DNA from: an uncultured Flavobacteriaceae bacterium
GTDB taxonomy: Bacteria; Bacteroidota; Bacteroidia; Flavobacteriales; Flavobacteriaceae
Direction: 5' to 3'
Length of the DNA: 64,000 bases
Assembly: GCA_905479065.1 (NCBI GenBank)
Contig: CAJQLB010000003.1
Coordinates: 62,001-126,000 of the forward strand
Positions 54,700-62,557 of this stretch are shown piece by piece. The first letter of the stretch is position 1; every line of letters begins with the position of its first letter. A program made the translations under genes and the position numbers. The notes beneath the pieces were generated by a model that saw nothing but the letters and a program-made list of their open reading frames with translations, searched no databases and was not told the origin of the DNA.

Positions 54700-55827
54700 A
54701 TGTTAGCTGTAAATTCTTTTGTAAGTGAGGTAGTTGTTCAATCACCCGGTAGGATAAATTTTATTGGAGAACATCTTGACTATAATGGTGGTCACGTACT
54801 TCCTGCCGCTATGAATCAAAAAATCACATTAAAATTTAGGAAAAATAATAGTCATATGTGCCATGTGACATCTATCCTATTGAAGAATGATTTTAAAATT
54901 GATTTAAATAATTTAGTCAAAACCGATACGCAATGGCATAACTTTATTCTCGGGGTGTTATTTCATATTAACGTACTTAAACCAAATATCTTAAAAGGTT
55001 TTGATTGCATCATAGAAAGTGATTTAGCATTAGGAGCTGGTTTAAGCTCATCAGCAGCATTGGAATGTGGTTTAGCAAAAGGGATTAATGAGTTATTTAA
55101 AATTGGATTAACTGACACAGAACTCATTGAGCTATCAAGAGATACTGAGCATACCTTTATTGGTGCCAAATGTGGAATAATGGATCAATTTGCAGTTATT
55201 AAAGGGAAAAAAAATCATCTTTTATTTTTAAATTGTGAGACCTTAGCGTACGATTTAATAGAAGTTGATTTTAAACCTTACATCATCGTGTTATTAAATT
55301 CAAATGTGTCACACAACTTAGCTAATAGTGCATACAATAGGAGAAGAGATGAATGTTCCATTGCACTGACAATTATCAAGAAAAAATACCCCAACTATAA
55401 GTTTTTATCAAAAGTTCCTCTAGAAATTTTAAATGAATTTGAACATGTGCTTTCAGACGAAATATACCATCGGGCATTGTATGTCATTGAAGAAAACAAA
55501 AGGTCAATAAATGCAGTAGCTCACCTAAAAAACTTTGACTTTATAAATTTCGGAAATTGTTTGTATCAATCGCATTACGGTCTACAACAACACTATGAGG
55601 TGAGTTGTGAGGAACTTGATTTTTTAGTGGAACTTACTAAAGGTTTAGATTATGTTTTGGGATCTCGAATGATGGGTGGGGGATTTGGTGGTTGCACGAT
55701 TAATATAGTTCATTCAACTCATGTTGATCAGTTTATTGAGGACACCAAAGGAGCTTACAGGAAAACATACAACAAAGAATTGTCTGCGATAATAACAACA
55801 ATTGATGATGGCGCATGCATTGTTTAA
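54700..55827 (+). CDS. galK: Galactokinase (GHMP kinase family)
   Basis: A 375-residue cytoplasmic enzyme that phosphorylates galactose at C1 with ATP. The galactokinase signature GRINFIGEHLDY is at 17-28, the GHMP ATP-binding loop LGAGLSSSAALE at 111-122, the catalytic Asp162 in CGIMDQFAV, and the third motif GGGFGGC near 331-337. The EHLDY form (where many have EHTDY) and length 375 are within family range. No galT, galE or galM is adjacent, so this is an isolated galK. A small ORF starts one base after its stop. N-acetylgalactosamine kinase is a close alternative, but the EHxDY signature suits both. Confidence 0.92.
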   Translation: MLAVNSFVSEVVVQSPGRINFIGEHLDYNGGHVLPAAMNQKITLKFRKNNSHMCHVTSILLKNDFKIDLNNLVKTDTQWHNFILGVLFHINVLKPNILKGFDCIIESDLALGAGLSSSAALECGLAKGINELFKIGLTDTELIELSRDTEHTFIGAKCGIMDQFAVIKGKKNHLLFLNCETLAYDLIEVDFKPYIIVLLNSNVSHNLANSAYNRRRDECSIALTIIKKKYPNYKFLSKVPLEILNEFEHVLSDEIYHRALYVIEENKRSINAVAHLKNFDFINFGNCLYQSHYGLQQHYEVSCEELDFLVELTKGLDYVLGSRMMGGGFGGCTINIVHSTHVDQFIEDTKGAYRKTYNKELSAIITTIDDGACIV

Positions 55828-56298: not shown

Positions 56299-56928
56299 AT
56301 GGATGTTATTGATCAATTACAGTGGCGTTATGCTACAAAAAAGTTTGATGAAACACTGCTTCTGTCTAAAGAAAAAATAGCAACATTAAAAGAGGCATTT
56401 AATCTAACTGCCACTTCATATGGTCTTCAACCAGTAAAATTAGTGATACTTAGTAACAAGGAACTTCAATGCCAATTGGTGCCACATACAATGAATCAGC
56501 AGCAAGTAGCTCAGGCATCCCATGTCTTAATTTTTTGTATTGAAGAGCAGATTGATCAAGCCTACATTGCCTCTTACTTTAATCGTGTGAAAGGTATTAG
56601 ACAGACTCCAGACAGAGTTTTACAGCCATTCAAACAATTTTTAATAAACGATTTTGAAAAATTAAATCAAAATCAAATAGAGTTATGGGCTATGAAACAA
56701 GCTTATTTGACTATGGGTAATCTGTTAACGGTATGTGCAGTTGAGCGTATTGACGCTTGTCCAATGGAAGGGTTTGATCCCGATCAATATGACCAACTTC
56801 TTGAGTTAAATAAACGAGGTCTGAAGTCGGTGTTAGTGATGCCAGTAGGTCACCGTGCAGCTGATGATGCTTTTGCTGATTTGAAAAAAGTAAGAAAAGA
56901 GCTAAAAAATAGTGTTATCGATTTATAA
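56299..56928 (+). CDS. NAD(P)H-dependent oxidoreductase, nitroreductase family (NfsB-like)
   Basis: A 209-residue FMN flavoprotein. The N-terminal WRYATKKFDE segment carries the FMN-phosphate-binding Arg/Lys pattern of nitroreductases; TATSYGLQPVKLVIL, HTMNQQQVAQASHVLIFC, WAMKQAYLTMGNLL and CPMEGFDPDQYDQLL follow, each diagnostic for the NfsB/FRP subfamily. These enzymes use NAD(P)H to reduce quinones, nitro compounds or flavin. It is cytoplasmic and single. Substrate is not readable. A 303-bp gap follows. Confidence 0.92.
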   Translation: MDVIDQLQWRYATKKFDETLLLSKEKIATLKEAFNLTATSYGLQPVKLVILSNKELQCQLVPHTMNQQQVAQASHVLIFCIEEQIDQAYIASYFNRVKGIRQTPDRVLQPFKQFLINDFEKLNQNQIELWAMKQAYLTMGNLLTVCAVERIDACPMEGFDPDQYDQLLELNKRGLKSVLVMPVGHRAADDAFADLKKVRKELKNSVIDL

Positions 56929-57231: not shown

Positions 57232-58707
57232 TTACCCTAATGATGCTATAAACTCAAATACTAAAGGGTCAAAGCCCCATAAAAAGGGCAATAGAAAATA
57301 AACAAAAAGGGTCAATAAAATAATAGATAATATGTTCATCCATATCCCTGTTTTCATCATATCAGGAATGCGCAAATAACCTGAGCCAAAAACAACCGCG
57401 TTTGGAGGGGTCGCTACAGGTAACATAAAAGCACACGAAGCAGCAACGGTTGCCGCAACCATCAAAACGAATGGATGTACATTAATGACCTCTGCCATGG
57501 GATATAAAATAGGTAATAACATAGCTGTTGTTGCCAGATTAGAAGTAATTTCTGTAAGAAAATTAACAGAAGTTATCAAAACAAAAACTAATAAAAGAAG
57601 TGAAATACCGTCCAGTAAAGTCATTTGAGAACCGATCCACAGAGCTAAGCCACTCTCTTTAAAACCTGAAGCTAATGCCATTCCTCCACCAAATAATAAT
57701 AAAATTCCCCAAGGTAATTTGACAGCCTCTTTCCAATTTAACAGGCGCCTATCCTTATTCTTGGTAGGTAATAAAAAAAGTATGAGAGCACTTATTAAAC
57801 CAATAATTGTGTCATCAATCGCCGGCATAATAGAATTTAGAAAAAAGGAGCGACTAATCCAGGCCAGTGCCGTTAAGGTAAAAACTCCTGCCACCAATCT
57901 CTCTTCATAGCTAATTGGACCTAATGCCTTTAATTGTTTCGTAATATCTGCTCGCCCATCAGGAAAAGATTTTTGTTTAAATTTAAAGGAAATACTCGTT
58001 AAGTATTTCCAGCATAGAAATAATAATACTACGGAGATAGGAAAGCCAAATTTAAACCATTGGGCAAAAGTAATTTCATATCCAAAGGTCTCTTCAACGA
58101 CGCCTGCGAGTACCAAATTAGGGGGTGTTCCAATCAAAGTACTCATGCCTCCAATGGTAGCACTATAGGCAATTGCCAACATCAAGGCTTTTCCAAAAAT
58201 CTGATTTTCATCTTCTATAGTCTTTGGATTATCTCTTAATTGTGCCACGATTGCCATACCGATTGGCAACATCATAACAGTCGTAGCCGTATTGGAAATC
58301 CACATCGACATAAATGCAGTTGCCACCATAAAACCGAGTATGATATTAACGATATTGGTGCCGATGAAATTAATGATATTTAAAGCTATGCGTTTGTGTA
58401 AATTCCATTTTTCTATGGCAATGGCAATGATAAAGCCTCCTACATACAGAAAGACATATTTGTGACCAAAGGAGGCGGTGGTGTTTGACAAATCTAAGCC
58501 ACCTGTTAAAGGAAACAAAATAATGGGCAATAAGGCAGTTACAGCAATAGGAATAGCCTCTGTAATCCACCAAATTGCTATCCATGATGTAGATGCTAAA
58601 ATGGCATTTGCTCTGGGACTTAAACCTTCAGGATGAAAGAAAAGTAGAATTATTAGGAATGTCAAAGGACCTGAAATTAAGCCGATATTTTTTGAATTGA
58701 TAGTCAT
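57232..58707 (-). CDS. DASS/SLC13 family anion (dicarboxylate):sodium symporter
   Basis: About 491 residues from the ATG at 58707 (MTINSKNIG); the upstream Met at 58746 would overlap the dehydrogenase gene. About 11-12 membrane segments. The family marks are the SNT motif in MWISNTATTVMMLPIGMA, a second SNLATTAM repeat in EITSNLATTAMLLPILYP, and MLPVATPPNAVVFGSG near the C-terminus. The two S-N-x/A-T-T repeats bind Na+ and the carboxylate substrate in VcINDY-like transporters, so succinate, malate, tartrate or similar acids are the expected load. It follows the tartrate/malate dehydrogenase gene (gap of 16 bp with this start), which fits uptake of the dehydrogenase substrate. Confidence 0.93.
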   Translation of the reverse strand: MTINSKNIGLISGPLTFLIILLFFHPEGLSPRANAILASTSWIAIWWITEAIPIAVTALLPIILFPLTGGLDLSNTTASFGHKYVFLYVGGFIIAIAIEKWNLHKRIALNIINFIGTNIVNIILGFMVATAFMSMWISNTATTVMMLPIGMAIVAQLRDNPKTIEDENQIFGKALMLAIAYSATIGGMSTLIGTPPNLVLAGVVEETFGYEITFAQWFKFGFPISVVLLFLCWKYLTSISFKFKQKSFPDGRADITKQLKALGPISYEERLVAGVFTLTALAWISRSFFLNSIMPAIDDTIIGLISALILFLLPTKNKDRRLLNWKEAVKLPWGILLLFGGGMALASGFKESGLALWIGSQMTLLDGISLLLLVFVLITSVNFLTEITSNLATTAMLLPILYPMAEVINVHPFVLMVAATVAASCAFMLPVATPPNAVVFGSGYLRIPDMMKTGIWMNILSIILLTLFVYFLLPFLWGFDPLVFEFIASLG

Positions 58708-58723
58708 ATTCGATTGGTTAAAA

Positions 58724-59782
58724 TTAGGACTGAGCAATTTGCTCAATAATCGCTTTCGTAACGTCTTGTGTGCCAGCAGTACCTCCTAAATCTCTTGTTA
58801 AAATATCTCCTTTTTCGGTTATATTTTCAATTGCATTTACTATCAATTTAGCGCCTTCCGTTTCTCCCAAATGATCTAACATCATTGCGGCTGTCCAAAT
58901 ACAAGCAATTGGGTTGGCTAATTTTTTTCCTGCTATATCTGGTGCACTTCCGTGAACGGGTTCAAACATGCTAGGGAATTCTTTCTCAGGGTTTATATTT
59001 GCACCTGGTGCGATTCCCATTCCTCCAACAACAGCAGGTCCTAAATCTGATAAAATATCTCCAAATAAATTACTAGCTACCACCACATCAAACCAGTCAG
59101 GATGTTGAACAAAATGTGCTGCTAATATATCAATATGAAATTGGTCAGTAAACACGTCAGGGTATTTTATACTCATAGCTTTATAACGTTCATCCCAATA
59201 AGGCATTGTGTGGATGATCCCATTCGATTTGGTAGCACTCGTTAATTTTTTACCTCTTTTATTAGCTAATTCAAAGGCATATTTCATAACTCTGTCAACA
59301 CCTCGTCTAGTAAAAATACTTTCTTGTACCGCCAATTCGTGATCTGTTCCCTCATATAATCGCCCACCAATGGAAGAATATTCTCCTTCATTATTTTCCC
59401 GTACAATGTAAAAATCTACAGGGCCTGGGTTTTTTAATGGAGATGCTACTCCTTTCAATAATTTAACTGGTCGTAGATTAACATACTGTTGAAAATTTCT
59501 TCTAATTGGAATTAATAAACCCCACAAAGATATATGATCTGGTACACCCGGATAGCCAACTGCTCCTAAAAAAATACTATCACTATCTCTTAACCGCTCC
59601 AAACCGTCTTCAGGCATCATTTTGCCGTATTTCTTAAAATACTCGCAAGAATAGTCGTGATTTTTAAATTTTAGTTGGAAACCGCATTTAGCAGCTATAG
59701 CGTTTAAAATCTTTACTGATTCCGGAATGACTTCTTTACCAATTCCATCTCCAGGAATAGTAGCAATTTGATAGGTATTCAT
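58724..59782 (-). CDS. Tartrate dehydrogenase / D-malate dehydrogenase (decarboxylating)
   Basis: A 352-residue enzyme of the isocitrate/isopropylmalate dehydrogenase family. The N-terminal ATIPGDGIGKEVIP, the substrate-Arg region GLLIPIRRNFQQYVNLRPVK, the VRENNEGEYSSIGGRLYEGT block, catalytic SATKSNG and metal-binding Asp residues in NLFGDILSDLGP are all in place. The G-E-Y-S-S-x-G-G form is that of the tartrate dehydrogenase/D-malate decarboxylase group (TtuC/DmlA), not of leucine synthesis LeuB. Known activities of the group are oxidation of tartrate to oxaloglycolate, decarboxylation of meso-tartrate to D-glycerate and of D-malate to pyruvate, with NAD+. It lies between the hydrolase (18 bp) and the DASS transporter, and a glycerate kinase is 1.6 kb away. 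Confidence 0.9.
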   Translation of the reverse strand: MNTYQIATIPGDGIGKEVIPESVKILNAIAAKCGFQLKFKNHDYSCEYFKKYGKMMPEDGLERLRDSDSIFLGAVGYPGVPDHISLWGLLIPIRRNFQQYVNLRPVKLLKGVASPLKNPGPVDFYIVRENNEGEYSSIGGRLYEGTDHELAVQESIFTRRGVDRVMKYAFELANKRGKKLTSATKSNGIIHTMPYWDERYKAMSIKYPDVFTDQFHIDILAAHFVQHPDWFDVVVASNLFGDILSDLGPAVVGGMGIAPGANINPEKEFPSMFEPVHGSAPDIAGKKLANPIACIWTAAMMLDHLGETEGAKLIVNAIENITEKGDILTRDLGGTAGTQDVTKAIIEQIAQS

Positions 59783-59800
59783 TTGATTTAAATTAAAAAT

Positions 59801-60670
59801 TTACAAAAAAGAAAGCAAAGCAGCTAAAGTCTCTTTTGGTGCTTCCTCTGGCAAATAATGACCACAAGATAGGCTATAACCACTAACATTTGTTGCCCAT
59901 TTTTTCCATTCTGCTATGACATCATATTTATTTCCCACGAAACCTTTTGTACCCCAAATTGCCAGCACAGGGCAGGCTATTTTATGCCCATTATCTAAAT
60001 CAATTTGGTCGTGGTCTAAGTCTATTGAAGCAGAAGCGCGATAATCTTCGCAACTTGCATGGATGGTCTCTGGTGTCAAACAGCGCAGATATTCTGCAAA
60101 GGCAGTTTTCGTAAATGCACCATTATCTCTTCCCCATTGACCAAATTTTTTATTGAGAAAATACATGGGGTCTGCGTTAATCATCCGCTCAGGAATATCT
60201 GCGGGCTGAATTAGAAAAAACCAATGATAATAGGCTTTTGCAAAATCCATATCCGTTGTTTTGTACATGGTATAGGTCGGTGCGATATCCATTACCACTA
60301 ATTTCTCAACACTTTCAGGATAGTCTAATGCTAAACGATGTCCCACTCTCCCTCCTCGGTCGTGGCCGATCAGTAAAAACCTATCAAACCCCAAATTTTT
60401 CATTAATTGAACTTGGTCCTCAGCCATTGCTCTTTTTGAATAAGGTTCGTGCTTTTTATCTGTAGGAGGTTTACTACTATCGCCGTAGCCTCTAAGATCA
60501 CTTGCAACAACCGTATATTTTGTAGCTAAAGTAGGTGCAATTTTATGCCAAATAATATGAGTTTGTGGATACCCATGTAATAGCAGTAATGGTGGACCAC
60601 TTCCACCGATAACATAAGTGATATTGACATTATTAACCTTAGCAAATGACTTTTTAAAGCTTTTAAACAT
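59801..60670 (-). CDS. Haloacetate/fluoroacetate dehalogenase-type alpha/beta hydrolase
   Basis: 289 residues from the ATG at 60670 (MFKSFKKSF); the longer frame to 60748 crosses the regulator promoter and is rejected. The fold shows the oxyanion motif HGYPQT and the nucleophile elbow GHDRGGR, with Asp104 as nucleophile instead of Ser. Compared with fluoroacetate dehalogenase RPA1163 (Asp110, Arg111, Arg114, Asp134, His155, Trp156, Tyr219, His280), every position has a match at constant offset: Asp104, Arg105, Arg108, Asp128, His149, Trp150, Tyr210, His271. These are the nucleophile, carboxylate clamp, halide pocket and charge relay. It should hydrolyse a 2-halo acid (or open an epoxide acid) by ester formation on Asp. 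It is first in an operon with a tartrate/malate dehydrogenase and a DASS carrier. Confidence 0.88.
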   Translation of the reverse strand: MFKSFKKSFAKVNNVNITYVIGGSGPPLLLLHGYPQTHIIWHKIAPTLATKYTVVASDLRGYGDSSKPPTDKKHEPYSKRAMAEDQVQLMKNLGFDRFLLIGHDRGGRVGHRLALDYPESVEKLVVMDIAPTYTMYKTTDMDFAKAYYHWFFLIQPADIPERMINADPMYFLNKKFGQWGRDNGAFTKTAFAEYLRCLTPETIHASCEDYRASASIDLDHDQIDLDNGHKIACPVLAIWGTKGFVGNKYDVIAEWKKWATNVSGYSLSCGHYLPEEAPKETLAALLSFL

Positions 60671-60693
60671 CTGTAAATTATTTATAACTTTGT

Positions 60694-60718
60694 ACTTATA
60701 AGACGAAAGTCTCACAAA
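60694..60718. promoter_or_regulatory. Operator-like repeat 1 (TetR site candidate)
   Basis: First of two 25-bp copies that match at 22 of 25 positions; both end in AAAGTCTCACAAA. Weak dyad symmetry (TTATAAGA and TCTCACAA halves). It overlaps the start region and the -7 element of the divergent hydrolase promoter. Confidence 0.6.
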
Positions 60719-60722
60719 TATA
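60715..60722 (-). promoter_or_regulatory. -7 promoter element of the hydrolase-dehydrogenase-transporter operon
   Basis: TATATTTG on the minus strand, a perfect TAnnTTTG match, 45 bp upstream of the hydrolase ATG at 60670. It sits between the two operator-like repeats. No TTTG at 19 bp was found. Confidence 0.5.
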
Positions 60723-60726
60723 TAAA

Positions 60727-60751
60727 ACTTATGAGAAAAAAGTCTCACAAA
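60727..60751. promoter_or_regulatory. Operator-like repeat 2 (TetR site candidate)
   Basis: Second copy, exactly 33 bp from the first (about three helical turns, same face). Better dyad: TTATGAGA and TCTCACAA around six central bases. It covers the -33 region of the hydrolase promoter and the regulator's own start codon at 60731, so binding would block both. Confidence 0.6.
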
Positions 60752-61342
60752 GAGGAAGATTATTTAGAATCAGGACGTATAGGTCAGAAAAGAAAAACGC
60801 GTGAGTTACTATTGGCAACTGCTAAGAAGATGTTAGTTAAGGGTGAAAATATTAGTGTAGAGCAAGTGGCTCTAGTGGCGGGTATATCTAAGGCAACAGC
60901 ATATCGCTATTTTTCAAATAAGGATATCTTATTAAAAGAAGCGTCTTTACAAAGAGGCTTGATGGATAAAGATGATTTGTTTGGTGATATTGATGTATGC
61001 AATTTAAATGCACGGATTGAAAAATTAATTGATTATCATTTTGAGGTTTTGACTACAAATGAAGATGTATTTCGATTATATTTAGGTGCAATAATGCAGA
61101 ATTCCGTTCGAGATAAGAAAAATTATTCGAGAGGAGGAAAAAGAATTCTATTGATAGCCGAGGCACTTCTACCTTTAAAAAAAGAGATTTCAAAAGAAAC
61201 ATTTGATAAAATGGTTAACGCAATAAGTCTTTTAATGGGCATAGAATCTGTTTCCATATTAAAAGATATTTGTGGTTTAGAAAATGGAAGTATTCAAGAA
61301 ATGTGGAAATGGATGATTCAAAAGATAATTACAAACCCATAG
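60731..61342 (+). CDS. TetR/AcrR family regulator of the hydrolase operon
   Basis: A 203-residue repressor. After a basic arm (MRKKSHKEEDYLESGRIGQK), the DNA-binding domain at ~20-68 shows TRELLLATAKKMLVKG, SVEQVALVAGISKATAYRYF (helix-turn-helix) and SNKDILLKEAS, a classic TetR pattern. The C-terminal ligand domain (~75-203) is helical and not specific. It is divergent from the hydrolase operon across a 60-bp shared promoter region that carries two matched 25-bp repeats, the usual arrangement for a local repressor. The second repeat covers the ATG, so a start further downstream is possible but no good Met lies near. The inducer is probably an acid handled by the operon (inference). Confidence 0.92.
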   Translation: MRKKSHKEEDYLESGRIGQKRKTRELLLATAKKMLVKGENISVEQVALVAGISKATAYRYFSNKDILLKEASLQRGLMDKDDLFGDIDVCNLNARIEKLIDYHFEVLTTNEDVFRLYLGAIMQNSVRDKKNYSRGGKRILLIAEALLPLKKEISKETFDKMVNAISLLMGIESVSILKDICGLENGSIQEMWKWMIQKIITNP

Positions 61343-61417
61343 TTTATGTCATTACTTGGGTAAAGGTTAGTAATACTAGATGTAAAAAAATGGCTAAGCT
61401 TCTAAATAAAGTTAAAG

Positions 61418-62557
61418 ATGAAAATTTTAATTTCTCCCGATAAATTTAAAGGTTCTTTAAGCGCTATCGAAGTTTGTAATGCCCTTGCAAAAGGACTGAA
61501 AAAGAGTAACTCTAGTCTAGACATTACAGCTTGTCCGATGGCAGATGGGGGAGATGGTTCATTACAAACAATAAATTATTATTTAAATTTAAAGCCTGTT
61601 GAACTACTTGTAAATGACCCTTTATTTCGCCCCATAAAATCAACTTATTATCGTTCTCAAAAGATAGCTTATATTGAAATGTCATCTGCATCTGGCTTGG
61701 TTTTATTAAAGGAAGAAGAGCGTAATTGCATGTTTACGTCTTCTTTTGGTACGGGTGAATTAATTGCTGATGCCATACAAAAAGGAGCAACAACCATTAA
61801 TCTATTTATCGGTGGAAGTGCAACAAATGACGGAGGAATTGGCATAGCCTCAGCTTTAGGGTATCGATTTTTTGATGCCTGCGAAAATTTACTATCACCT
61901 ATAGGGCAAAATCTTTTATTAATTAACCGAATAGATGACAGTGAGGTGCTTTTTAAGACTAAAGAAGTCCAAGTGAAAGTAATTTGTGATGTCAATACCT
62001 TATTGTATGGTAAAAATGGGGCAGCTTATATTTATGGTGTTCAAAAAGGTGCAAGTTCAATTGAAATTGAACAATTAAACCAAGGTTTAGTCAATTTATC
62101 ATCAAAATTACTTGAACATGATTTGCCTAATATTTCTGATATCCCTGGAGCAGGTGCAGCCGGTGGAGTTGGTGGAGGCGCTTTTGCTTTTCTCGGGGCA
62201 CAATTACTTTCAGGTATTCAAAACTTCATAGAAATTACTCAATTAGAAACATTGATTAAGGAGTGTGATTTAGTGATAACAGGGGAAGGGAAATTAGATA
62301 TTCAAACAGAAGAAGGTAAAGTCATCAGTGGTGTTTGTCAACTAGCTAAAAAAAATAAAAAACCAATTATTGCAGTGTGTGGTGATGTTGATTTACCTAT
62401 TTCAAAGTCACTTGAACTTAAAAAAGTTTATACAGTTTTGAGTAAATCAAAATCTGTTGAGGAAGCTATAGCCAAAGCAGCAGAAAAGTTAGTATTAATT
62501 GGTCATGAAATCGGTGTAAAATTTTGCAAGCATGCAAAAAAACCATCAATTCAATAA
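61418..62557 (+). CDS. glxK: Glycerate kinase, type I (GarK/GlxK family)
   Basis: A 379-residue kinase of the glycerate kinase I family, which phosphorylates D-glycerate to 2-phosphoglycerate with ATP. The start KILISPDKFKGSLSAIEV, the block PMADGGDGSLQTI, GGSATNDGGIGIASALG, PGAGAAGGVGGGAFAF and TGEGKLDIQTEEGKV are all diagnostic and in order; the length is exactly that of GarK (~380). It follows the TetR gene by 75 bp on the same strand, so it may be in its transcript or have its own promoter (none recognised). With the tartrate dehydrogenase, whose products can include D-glycerate, it links the neighbouring operon to lower glycolysis. Confidence 0.95.
   Translation: MKILISPDKFKGSLSAIEVCNALAKGLKKSNSSLDITACPMADGGDGSLQTINYYLNLKPVELLVNDPLFRPIKSTYYRSQKIAYIEMSSASGLVLLKEEERNCMFTSSFGTGELIADAIQKGATTINLFIGGSATNDGGIGIASALGYRFFDACENLLSPIGQNLLLINRIDDSEVLFKTKEVQVKVICDVNTLLYGKNGAAYIYGVQKGASSIEIEQLNQGLVNLSSKLLEHDLPNISDIPGAGAAGGVGGGAFAFLGAQLLSGIQNFIEITQLETLIKECDLVITGEGKLDIQTEEGKVISGVCQLAKKNKKPIIAVCGDVDLPISKSLELKKVYTVLSKSKSVEEAIAKAAEKLVLIGHEIGVKFCKHAKKPSIQ

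What the first reader, a model, noticed from the sequence alone, without database searches (positions are those of the whole stretch)
57232..62557. A regulated halo-acid / dicarboxylate catabolic cassette: dehalogenase, tartrate/malate dehydrogenase, DASS carrier, TetR, glycerate kinase
Seen: a fluoroacetate-dehalogenase-type hydrolase, a TtuC/DmlA-type dehydrogenase and an SLC13 carrier are in one minus-strand run (18-bp and 16-bp gaps), divergent from a TetR gene followed by glycerate kinase. Known: such dehydrogenases can give D-glycerate from meso-tartrate or pyruvate from D-malate; glycerate kinase makes 2-phosphoglycerate; SLC13 carriers import dicarboxylates. Inference: the hydrolase frees a hydroxy acid (for example from a halo- or epoxy-succinate, giving malate or tartrate), then dehydrogenation and kinase steps feed glycolysis. 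I know of no described pathway with this exact set. The Asp nucleophile of this family can open either C-halide or epoxide, so an epoxysuccinate route is equally possible.
Basis: partly seen in the sequence, partly recalled or inferred. Interest (0 to 1): 0.72.

Follow-up and report, generated by a model that had tools for sequence, protein, structure and literature searches.

The report
Paired hydrolase and tartrate dehydrogenase cassette
A bacterium of the Flavobacteriaceae carries a small gene cluster, rare but kept together in distant relatives, that probably takes in an unusual four-carbon acid, opens it with a dehalogenase-like enzyme and feeds the product into central metabolism; the exact substrate has not been shown.

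Summary
The hydrolase has the full fluoroacetate-dehalogenase active site; the dehydrogenase passes the tartrate dehydrogenase cut-off. What is conserved is narrower than proposed: hydrolase plus tartrate-type dehydrogenase, adjacent on one strand in 11 of 11 other Bacteroidota loci found with the hydrolase. Starting from the dehydrogenase, 4 of 4 matching Flavobacteriaceae genomes (window included) have the hydrolase beside it. Families mix in the hydrolase tree, so I infer that the pair moves between lineages. A Ruegeria plasmid has a pairing with a different hydrolase subclade. The carrier is beside the pair in 5 of 13 cassettes, an intact glycerate kinase and this TetR only in the window. 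Yet glycerate kinase occurs in 11 of 12 cassette genomes tested against 62 of 296 Bacteroidota. A duplicated 25-bp site between the divergent genes may be the operator. Best reading: an epoxy- or halo-C4-diacid gives meso-tartrate, then D-glycerate, then 2-phosphoglycerate; trans-epoxysuccinate fits with fewest extra steps. Halosuccinate to D-malate stays open. The substrate is inference.

The parts
57232..58707 (-). DASS/SLC13 sodium-coupled anion carrier, 491 aa, third gene of the minus-strand run
   Evidence: TIGR00785 325.8 bits over cut-off 198.6; nearest solved: SLC13A2, SLC13A3 and SLC13A5, then VcINDY; SNTATT and SNLATT motifs visible in the translation
58724..59782 (-). Tartrate dehydrogenase/decarboxylase-type (TtuC/DmlA) dehydrogenase, 352 aa
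   Evidence: TIGR02089 563.7 over 470.4 and NF006048 537.1 over 501; 3flk 3.8e-131; 11 other cassette copies 75-85% identical to it
59801..60673 (-). Fluoroacetate-dehalogenase-family alpha/beta hydrolase, 290 aa, first gene of the run
   Evidence: 58% identical to Alr0039; D105, R106, R109, D129, H150, W151, Y211, H272 in 12 of 12 cassette copies aligned; AF2 model pLDDT 93.7
60694..60718 (.). Candidate operator copy 1 (25-bp direct repeat); starts 2 bp after the tetR -7-like box and overlaps the hydrolase -7-like box
   Evidence: the 16-bp core occurs only twice in the genome at up to 1 mismatch, both here
60727..60751 (.). Candidate operator copy 2, 33 bp from copy 1, overlapping the TetR start codon
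   Evidence: 88% identical to copy 1; holds TTATGAGA-N6-TCTCACAA, 7 of 8 pairs
60715..60722 (-). TATATTTG, Bacteroidota-type -7-like box (TAnnTTTG, recalled motif) for the hydrolase run
   Evidence: only such box on the minus strand in 60640-60770; 35 in 64 kb; no TTG 17-23 bp upstream
60685..60692 (+). TAACTTTG, -7-like box for tetR
   Evidence: only such box on the plus strand in 60640-60770; 53 in 64 kb; no TTG 17-23 bp upstream
60731..61342 (+). TetR-family regulator, 203 aa, divergent from the run
   Evidence: PF00440 29.3 bits over cut-off 24
61418..62557 (+). Glycerate kinase (PF02595 family), 379 aa, 75 bp after tetR on the same strand
   Evidence: TIGR00045 384.3 over 168.45; no match in 3 congeneric genomes at E 0.001, one of them 62% complete

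Best explanation
A laterally transferred catabolic cassette with a two-enzyme core. A carboxylate is taken up by the DASS carrier (inferred). The hydrolase's Asp105 attacks the carbon next to a carboxylate, opening an epoxide or expelling a halide, and His272 frees the product by hydrolysis of the ester intermediate (inferred from conserved residues). The product is a 2-hydroxy- or 2,3-dihydroxy-succinate that the adjacent tartrate-type dehydrogenase decarboxylates with NAD and a divalent metal (inferred from family). I commit to this version: trans-epoxysuccinate (or a halomalate) gives meso-tartrate, which the dehydrogenase turns without net redox change into D-glycerate, and glycerate kinase turns that into 2-phosphoglycerate. 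TetR binds the duplicated 25-bp site and represses both divergent transcripts until the substrate appears. Shown: gene identities, intact active sites, conserved pairing, correlated divergence, patchy spread, a duplicated site found nowhere else in the genome, an excess of glycerate kinase in cassette genomes. Inferred: transfer, substrate, stereochemistry, regulation.
For: Hydrolase and dehydrogenase adjacent in 11 of 11 other Bacteroidota loci found by the hydrolase, at gaps of 1-24 bp (with the L039 and L041 starts corrected from the translations), and in 4 of 4 genomes found by the dehydrogenase (window included, two others repeat loci, one is new). Pairwise divergence of the two proteins is correlated, Mantel r 0.78, p 2e-4, 12 cassettes. 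Cassette hydrolases form one clade, 12 of 12, support 100/97, with families mixed. In Ruegeria the order is reversed and the hydrolase is of another subclade. Glycerate kinase at E<=1e-20 in 10 of 11 other cassette genomes against 61 of 295 others (binomial 1.3e-6, not corrected for kinship); in L034 a truncated kinase follows the pair. DASS of 64% identity or more in 10 of 11 other cassette genomes, in 3 of them the one beside the pair, against 8 of 39 relatives. Core of the repeat at up to 1 mismatch: 2 sites in the genome, both here. Cif-type epoxide hydrolases use a His-Tyr pair, and FAcD is called closely related to them (PMC8244358, passages). trans-Epoxysuccinate is made from fumarate by enzymes of fungi and of a cyanobacterium (PMC12568646, abstract and passages).
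Against: No assay. The closest characterised relative, Alr0039, is listed with fluoroacetate and difluoroacetate among its substrates, and the Trp said to be needed for C-F cleavage is kept (PMC11022551, section 5 part 1). Glycerate kinase is beside the pair in only 1 intact and 1 truncated case of 13. The dehydrogenase family also acts on D-malate (recalled), so meso-tartrate is not required. Outside Bacteroidota the hydrolase had no such dehydrogenase beside it in 0 of 50 loci, i.e. none. The core pattern with 2 mismatches reached two or more matches in 19 of 100 shuffled windows, and the repeat could be a plain 33-bp tandem duplication. No paper in the library names a trans-epoxysuccinate hydrolase, so there is no sequence to compare.
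Confidence: 0.42

Rival explanations
1. Halosuccinate route: the hydrolase turns an L-2-halosuccinate into D-malate with inversion, and the dehydrogenase acts as D-malate dehydrogenase giving pyruvate. Glycerate kinase belongs to other metabolism.
For: Intact halide pocket; nearest characterised relative dehalogenates; the TIGR02089 family also holds D-malate enzymes (recalled), and three E. coli records listed hold a 60% identical protein; the kinase is adjacent and intact only in the window.
Against: Does not explain the excess of glycerate kinase in cassette genomes or its place in the window and, truncated, in L034.
Confidence: 0.25
2. Haloacetate or fluoroacetate dehalogenation giving glycolate, with the dehydrogenase doing something unrelated.
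For: 58% identity to Alr0039 and complete FAcD active site; crcB in 11 of 12 cassette genomes; 5 of 12 have a full-length glcD-like match, though under the cut-off.
Against: The dehydrogenase is beside the hydrolase in all 13 Bacteroidota cassettes found and cannot use glycolate (family knowledge). crcB is common (10 of 14 controls) and not in the cassette, unlike the fluoroacetate cluster of Caballeronia S22, which has crcB, a thioesterase and an aconitate methyltransferase (PMC11812338, part 1 of 2 of the text). No genome of 12 has glcD over the cut-off, but only 2 of 14 controls do, so this is weak.
Confidence: 0.13
3. The hydrolase acts on another 2-substituted or 2,3-epoxy acid (for example a C5-C6 diacid), and the dehydrogenase on the matching 3-substituted malate.
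For: Related hydrolases on a Klebsiella and a Pantoea plasmid sit with leuC/leuD-like dehydratases, and one in Phyllobacterium sits among dehydrogenases and MmgE/PrpD proteins, so the wider family may serve several acids. Four cassettes follow a TonB receptor and an AEC permease.
Against: The dehydrogenase passes the tartrate cut-offs and fails those for isopropylmalate, homoisocitrate and isocitrate, one isopropylmalate model only just (390.4 against 393).
Confidence: 0.15

Closest known systems
Fluoroacetate dehalogenases (FAc-DEX FA1, RPA1163, Alr0039/NOS0089)
   Same: Fold family, triad, two carboxylate-binding Arg, His-Trp-Tyr halide pocket; 58% identity to Alr0039
   Different: Here beside a tartrate-type dehydrogenase and, in some genomes, a dicarboxylate-type carrier; no fluoride or fluoroacetyl-CoA defence gene in the cassette; activity untested
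Tartrate catabolism by TtuC-type dehydrogenase plus glycerate utilisation (Agrobacterium vitis, Pseudomonas putida; recalled)
   Same: Dehydrogenase family, a transporter, route to glycerate
   Different: An extra hydrolase, DASS carrier, PF02595 glycerate kinase, Bacteroidota host
cis-Epoxysuccinate hydrolases used to make tartaric acid (PMC6429283, passages)
   Same: Proposed reaction type: epoxysuccinate to tartrate
   Different: Those enzymes are of other protein families (recalled); this is an alpha/beta hydrolase
trans-Epoxysuccinate hydrolase, EC 3.3.2.4 (tartrate epoxidase of Pseudomonas putida; recalled)
   Same: Proposed reaction giving meso-tartrate
   Different: No paper of the library holds its names (0 papers), so no sequence could be compared; that it lacks a gene is recalled
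Cif-like epoxide hydrolases (PMC8244358, passages)
   Same: Asp-His-Asp/Glu triad, His-Tyr pair, alpha/beta hydrolase
   Different: The hydrolase here matches Cif-type chains at about 1e-23 to 1e-27, FAcD chains at about 1e-79 to 1e-97

Membership tests
Fluoroacetate dehalogenase (FAcD) family | Asp-His-Asp triad | tested here: met
   D105, H272, D129 in 12 of 12 cassette copies; FA1 counterparts named
Fluoroacetate dehalogenase (FAcD) family | Two carboxylate-binding Arg and His-Trp-Tyr halide pocket | tested here: met
   R106, R109, H150, W151, Y211 in 12 of 12
Fluoroacetate dehalogenase (FAcD) family | Hydrolysis of fluoroacetate | not testable with these tools
   needs an assay
Tartrate dehydrogenase (TIGR02089) | Score over the curated cut-off | tested here: met
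   563.7 against 470.4; NF006048 537.1 against 501
Tartrate dehydrogenase (TIGR02089) | Not over the cut-off of isopropylmalate or isocitrate dehydrogenase models | tested here: met
   leuB 247.6 against 353.2; NF002898 390.4 against 393 (just under); isocitrate models all under
Tartrate dehydrogenase (TIGR02089) | Activity on tartrate or D-malate | not testable with these tools
   needs an assay
DASS/SLC13 carrier | TIGR00785 cut-off | tested here: met
   325.8 against 198.6
Glycerate kinase PF02595/TIGR00045 | Score over cut-off | tested here: met
   399.4 against 23.3 and 384.3 against 168.45; the 2-kinase and 3-kinase equivalog cut-offs are not reached
Known fluoroacetate-utilisation cluster (Caballeronia S22) | Dehalogenase beside crcB, fluoroacetyl-CoA thioesterase, aconitate methyltransferase | tested here: not met
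   none among the genes of 57232-62557; the genome's crcB lies on another contig
trans-Epoxysuccinate hydrolase EC 3.3.2.4 | Hydrolysis of trans-epoxysuccinate to meso-tartrate | not testable with these tools
   no sequence to compare, no assay

The most novel reading that the evidence does not exclude
The hydrolase is a trans-epoxysuccinate hydrolase: a gene for an activity described decades ago without a sequence (recalled), recruited from the fluoroacetate-dehalogenase family and joined in an operon to tartrate catabolism, so that these Bacteroidota can eat an epoxy acid made by fungi and cyanobacteria.
Probability: 0.25. Interest if true: 0.68.

Novelty: new variant of a known kind. Interest (0 to 1): 0.5.

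Why it matters
Members of the fluoroacetate-dehalogenase family are named for a rare poison, while the everyday substrates of most of them are not established (my own knowledge of the field). A stable partnership with a tartrate-type dehydrogenase gives a concrete natural role to test, and the test is cheap: two soluble enzymes and a few commercial acids. It could give a gene to an epoxysuccinate-to-tartrate activity, or show a natural halo-diacid route.

Tried and rejected
Rejected: haloacetate detoxification as the whole story (the dehydrogenase is there in all 13 Bacteroidota cassettes found); the idea that the five-gene set is a conserved unit (only the pair is); the 5 other Bacteroidota dehydrogenases at 45-50% as members of the same pathway: 4 of 5 lie with a cyclase-like protein, a four-carbon acid-sugar-kinase-like protein, an MFS-like carrier and a Gfo/Idh-like protein, and 1 of 5 in what looks like leucine biosynthesis (names from reading the sequence, not from a family search).

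Led nowhere: clustering the neighbourhoods of the 50 non-Bacteroidota loci gave no dicarboxylate gene that I recognised among the 60 clusters printed; many of these are shadow frames in G+C-rich DNA. Cassette-specific residues include several Lys, but without coordinates they could not be placed in the pocket. Third-position G+C: DASS 0.325 and glycerate kinase 0.195 lie outside 13 long window ORFs picked by hand (mean 0.270, sd 0.020), hydrolase 0.299, dehydrogenase 0.241 and TetR 0.245 less so; this fits foreign origin only weakly. crcB and glcD searches discriminate poorly. None of the papers listed by the ten searches was seen to describe the pair or a gene for the trans-epoxysuccinate enzyme; most were seen as listings only. 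No fold search was run, since sequence already settled the families.

Rows dropped or partial: L070 (212 aa) was left out of the tree, and L043, L088 and L062 were cut to their last 300 residues there. The alignment (used for the model) holds 26 of 62 available hydrolases. Of 361 plasmid records with a hydrolase match only the listed rows were seen, likewise of 454 with a dehydrogenase match. Ten plasmid neighbourhoods were opened; those of Ruegeria and Phyllobacterium were chosen because the two matches lay close, so they are no rate. The other 8 show no dehydrogenase of this kind beside the hydrolase.
Full report
What is there. The window, 57232-62557, holds a minus-strand run of hydrolase, dehydrogenase and DASS carrier, with gaps of 18 and 16 bp, divergent from a TetR gene and a glycerate kinase. 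Family scores pass the curated cut-offs for tartrate dehydrogenase (TIGR02089 and NF006048), DASS and glycerate kinase; the TetR match is modest but over its cut-off. The dehydrogenase comes close to one isopropylmalate dehydrogenase model (NF002898, 390.4 against 393) without reaching it. The hydrolase's best solved relatives are Alr0039, the chain 4nvr (of Salmonella, recalled) and fluoroacetate dehalogenases.

Active sites. The FA1 residues named in PMC11022551 (section 5, part 1 read), Asp104, Arg105, Arg108, Asp128, His149, Trp150, Tyr212 and His271, correspond to D105, R106, R109, D129, H150, W151, Y211 and H272 here (my reading of the alignment), and all are kept in 12 of 12 cassette hydrolases. 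So the enzyme can plausibly act by the Asp-ester mechanism. That does not fix the bond cleaved: Cif-type epoxide hydrolases also use a His-Tyr pair, and their authors call FAcD closely related (PMC8244358, passages). The 11 other cassette dehydrogenases are 75-85% identical to the window's, with 84% mean column identity. The hydrolase model is confident (pLDDT 93.7, pTM 0.93), but no coordinates were available to inspect the pocket.

What is conserved. One scan of species genomes with the window hydrolase gave 61 loci. The 11 from Bacteroidota (71-78% identical) all have the dehydrogenase directly after the hydrolase on the same strand, at gaps of 1-24 bp once two starts mis-set (L039, L041) are read at their ATG (translations). 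None of the other 50 loci, by their titles Pseudomonadota and one actinobacterium, shows such a dehydrogenase at E 1e-5 within the DNA held; some of these stretches are short. Starting instead from the dehydrogenase at E<=1e-120, 4 of 349 Flavobacteriaceae genomes match, and all 4 have the hydrolase beside it: one is the window, two repeat L031 and L040, and one (L174), of the same genus label as the Leeuwenhoekiella genome, is new. That gives 13 distinct cassettes, window included. The DASS carrier is beside the pair in 5 of 13: after it in the window, before it in two Aquimarina, L. aestuarii and L174. In those four an AEC-type permease and a TonB receptor precede the carrier; FecR is there in all four, cut by the end of the stretch in L174, and the sigma factor in the three where that DNA is held (families scanned for L035; the others by similarity to L035). 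This TetR is in none of the other 12. Glycerate kinase follows the pair in L034, but its frame stops after 142 residues.

Rarity and transfer. At E<=1e-60 the hydrolase is in 1 of 395 Bacteroidota genomes drawn across the phylum, the window's own; in 39 relatives the best match is 4.6e-29 at 32% identity. The cassette hydrolases form one clade (12 of 12, 100/97) in which Saprospiraceae, Flammeovirgaceae and Flavobacteriaceae members mix; Alr0039 and four SAR116-type alphaproteobacterial hydrolases fall nearest, with weak support (90/71). Distances of the two proteins are correlated (Mantel r 0.78, p 2e-4, 12 cassettes). I infer joint transfer of the pair.

Pairing elsewhere. A Ruegeria conchae plasmid has the two genes with no gap and in reversed order. 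Its hydrolase belongs to another subclade and has Trp in place of the pocket His. In Phyllobacterium zundukense the hydrolase lies among three dehydrogenases of the Iso_dh family. These two were opened because the matches lay close, so they show that the link exists elsewhere, not how often; 8 other plasmid neighbourhoods opened lack it.

Which branch. Among the 11 other cassette genomes tested, 10 have a glycerate kinase at E<=1e-20 and the eleventh a broken-looking one at 1.2e-16; the phylum draw has 62 of 296, window included. The binomial value of 1.3e-6 ignores kinship, genome quality and size. A DASS of at least 64% identity is in 10 of 11, in 3 of them the copy beside the pair, against 8 of 39 relatives. 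In one Aquimarina a second DASS and a glycerate kinase are neighbours (L154). This favours a product that becomes glycerate. From family knowledge (recalled), tartrate dehydrogenase of Pseudomonas putida turns meso-tartrate into D-glycerate without net redox change and D-malate into pyruvate. Hence trans-epoxysuccinate or a halomalate giving meso-tartrate explains hydrolase, dehydrogenase and kinase with no missing enzyme. trans-Epoxysuccinate is made from fumarate by enzymes of fungi and of a cyanobacterium (PMC12568646, abstract and passages). For haloacids in marine Bacteroidota, PMC8490876 (passages) shows haloacetate dehalogenation by an enzyme of another family in Zobellia. No paper of the library holds 'tartrate epoxidase', 'tartrate epoxydase' or 'trans-epoxysuccinate'.

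Against. The closest characterised relative dehalogenates fluoroacetate, the kinase is beside the pair intact only in the window, and the dehydrogenase family takes D-malate too (recalled). crcB is in 11 of 12 cassette genomes, but also in 10 of 14 controls. Five of 12 genomes have a full-length glcD-like match under the cut-off, none over it; only 2 of 14 controls are over it.

Regulation. Between the divergent genes lie two copies of a 25-bp sequence, 88% identical and 33 bp apart. The 16-bp core pattern occurs twice in the genome at up to one mismatch, both here, with one hit for the reversed control. In the window alone, two or more matches at up to two mismatches occurred in 19 of 100 shuffles, so the core is not rare by itself; the tight pairing is what stands out (2 of 300 resampled regions reach the same repeat). 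One TAnnTTTG box (recalled Bacteroidota -7 motif) lies on each strand beside copy 1, without a TTG at 17-23 bp. A tandem duplication without function is not excluded.

Judgement. The substrate stays open: I give 0.42 to the tartrate/glycerate version, with halosuccinate next.

Noticed in passing
L136 (NZ_MN543582.1) and L137 (NZ_CP106661.1): A Klebsiella and a Pantoea plasmid carry a related hydrolase with Trp-Trp in the pocket, beside leuC/leuD-like dehydratase genes and a LysR regulator; the chain 4nvr groups with them. Their role is unknown to me.
   Followed up: partly
L134 (NZ_CP104969.1): Phyllobacterium region with three Iso_dh-family dehydrogenases, a PdxA-like protein, two MmgE/PrpD proteins and a tripartite tricarboxylate transporter around a divergent relative of the hydrolase.
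   Followed up: partly
L035 2581-8521, L037, L040, L174: FecR, STN-TonB receptor and AEC permease (and a sigma factor where the DNA is held) directly before DASS-hydrolase-dehydrogenase in Aquimarina and Leeuwenhoekiella; suggests dedicated outer-membrane uptake.
   Followed up: partly
L032 11984-13120: A DUF819 membrane protein follows the pair after 32 bp where no DASS is beside it; possibly a replacement carrier.
   Followed up: no
L154 5526-8204: In one Aquimarina genome a second DASS (55% identical) and a glycerate kinase are neighbours on one strand, away from the pair.
   Followed up: no
L143, L144, L145, L146: Bacteroidota operons with a 48-50% identical dehydrogenase, a cyclase-like protein, a four-carbon acid-sugar-kinase-like protein, MFS-like and Gfo/Idh-like proteins: apparently another acid-sugar route.
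   Followed up: no
window 54700-55827 and 56299-56928: Galactokinase and nitroreductase genes between the amidohydrolase and the cassette; no link to the cassette seen.
   Followed up: no
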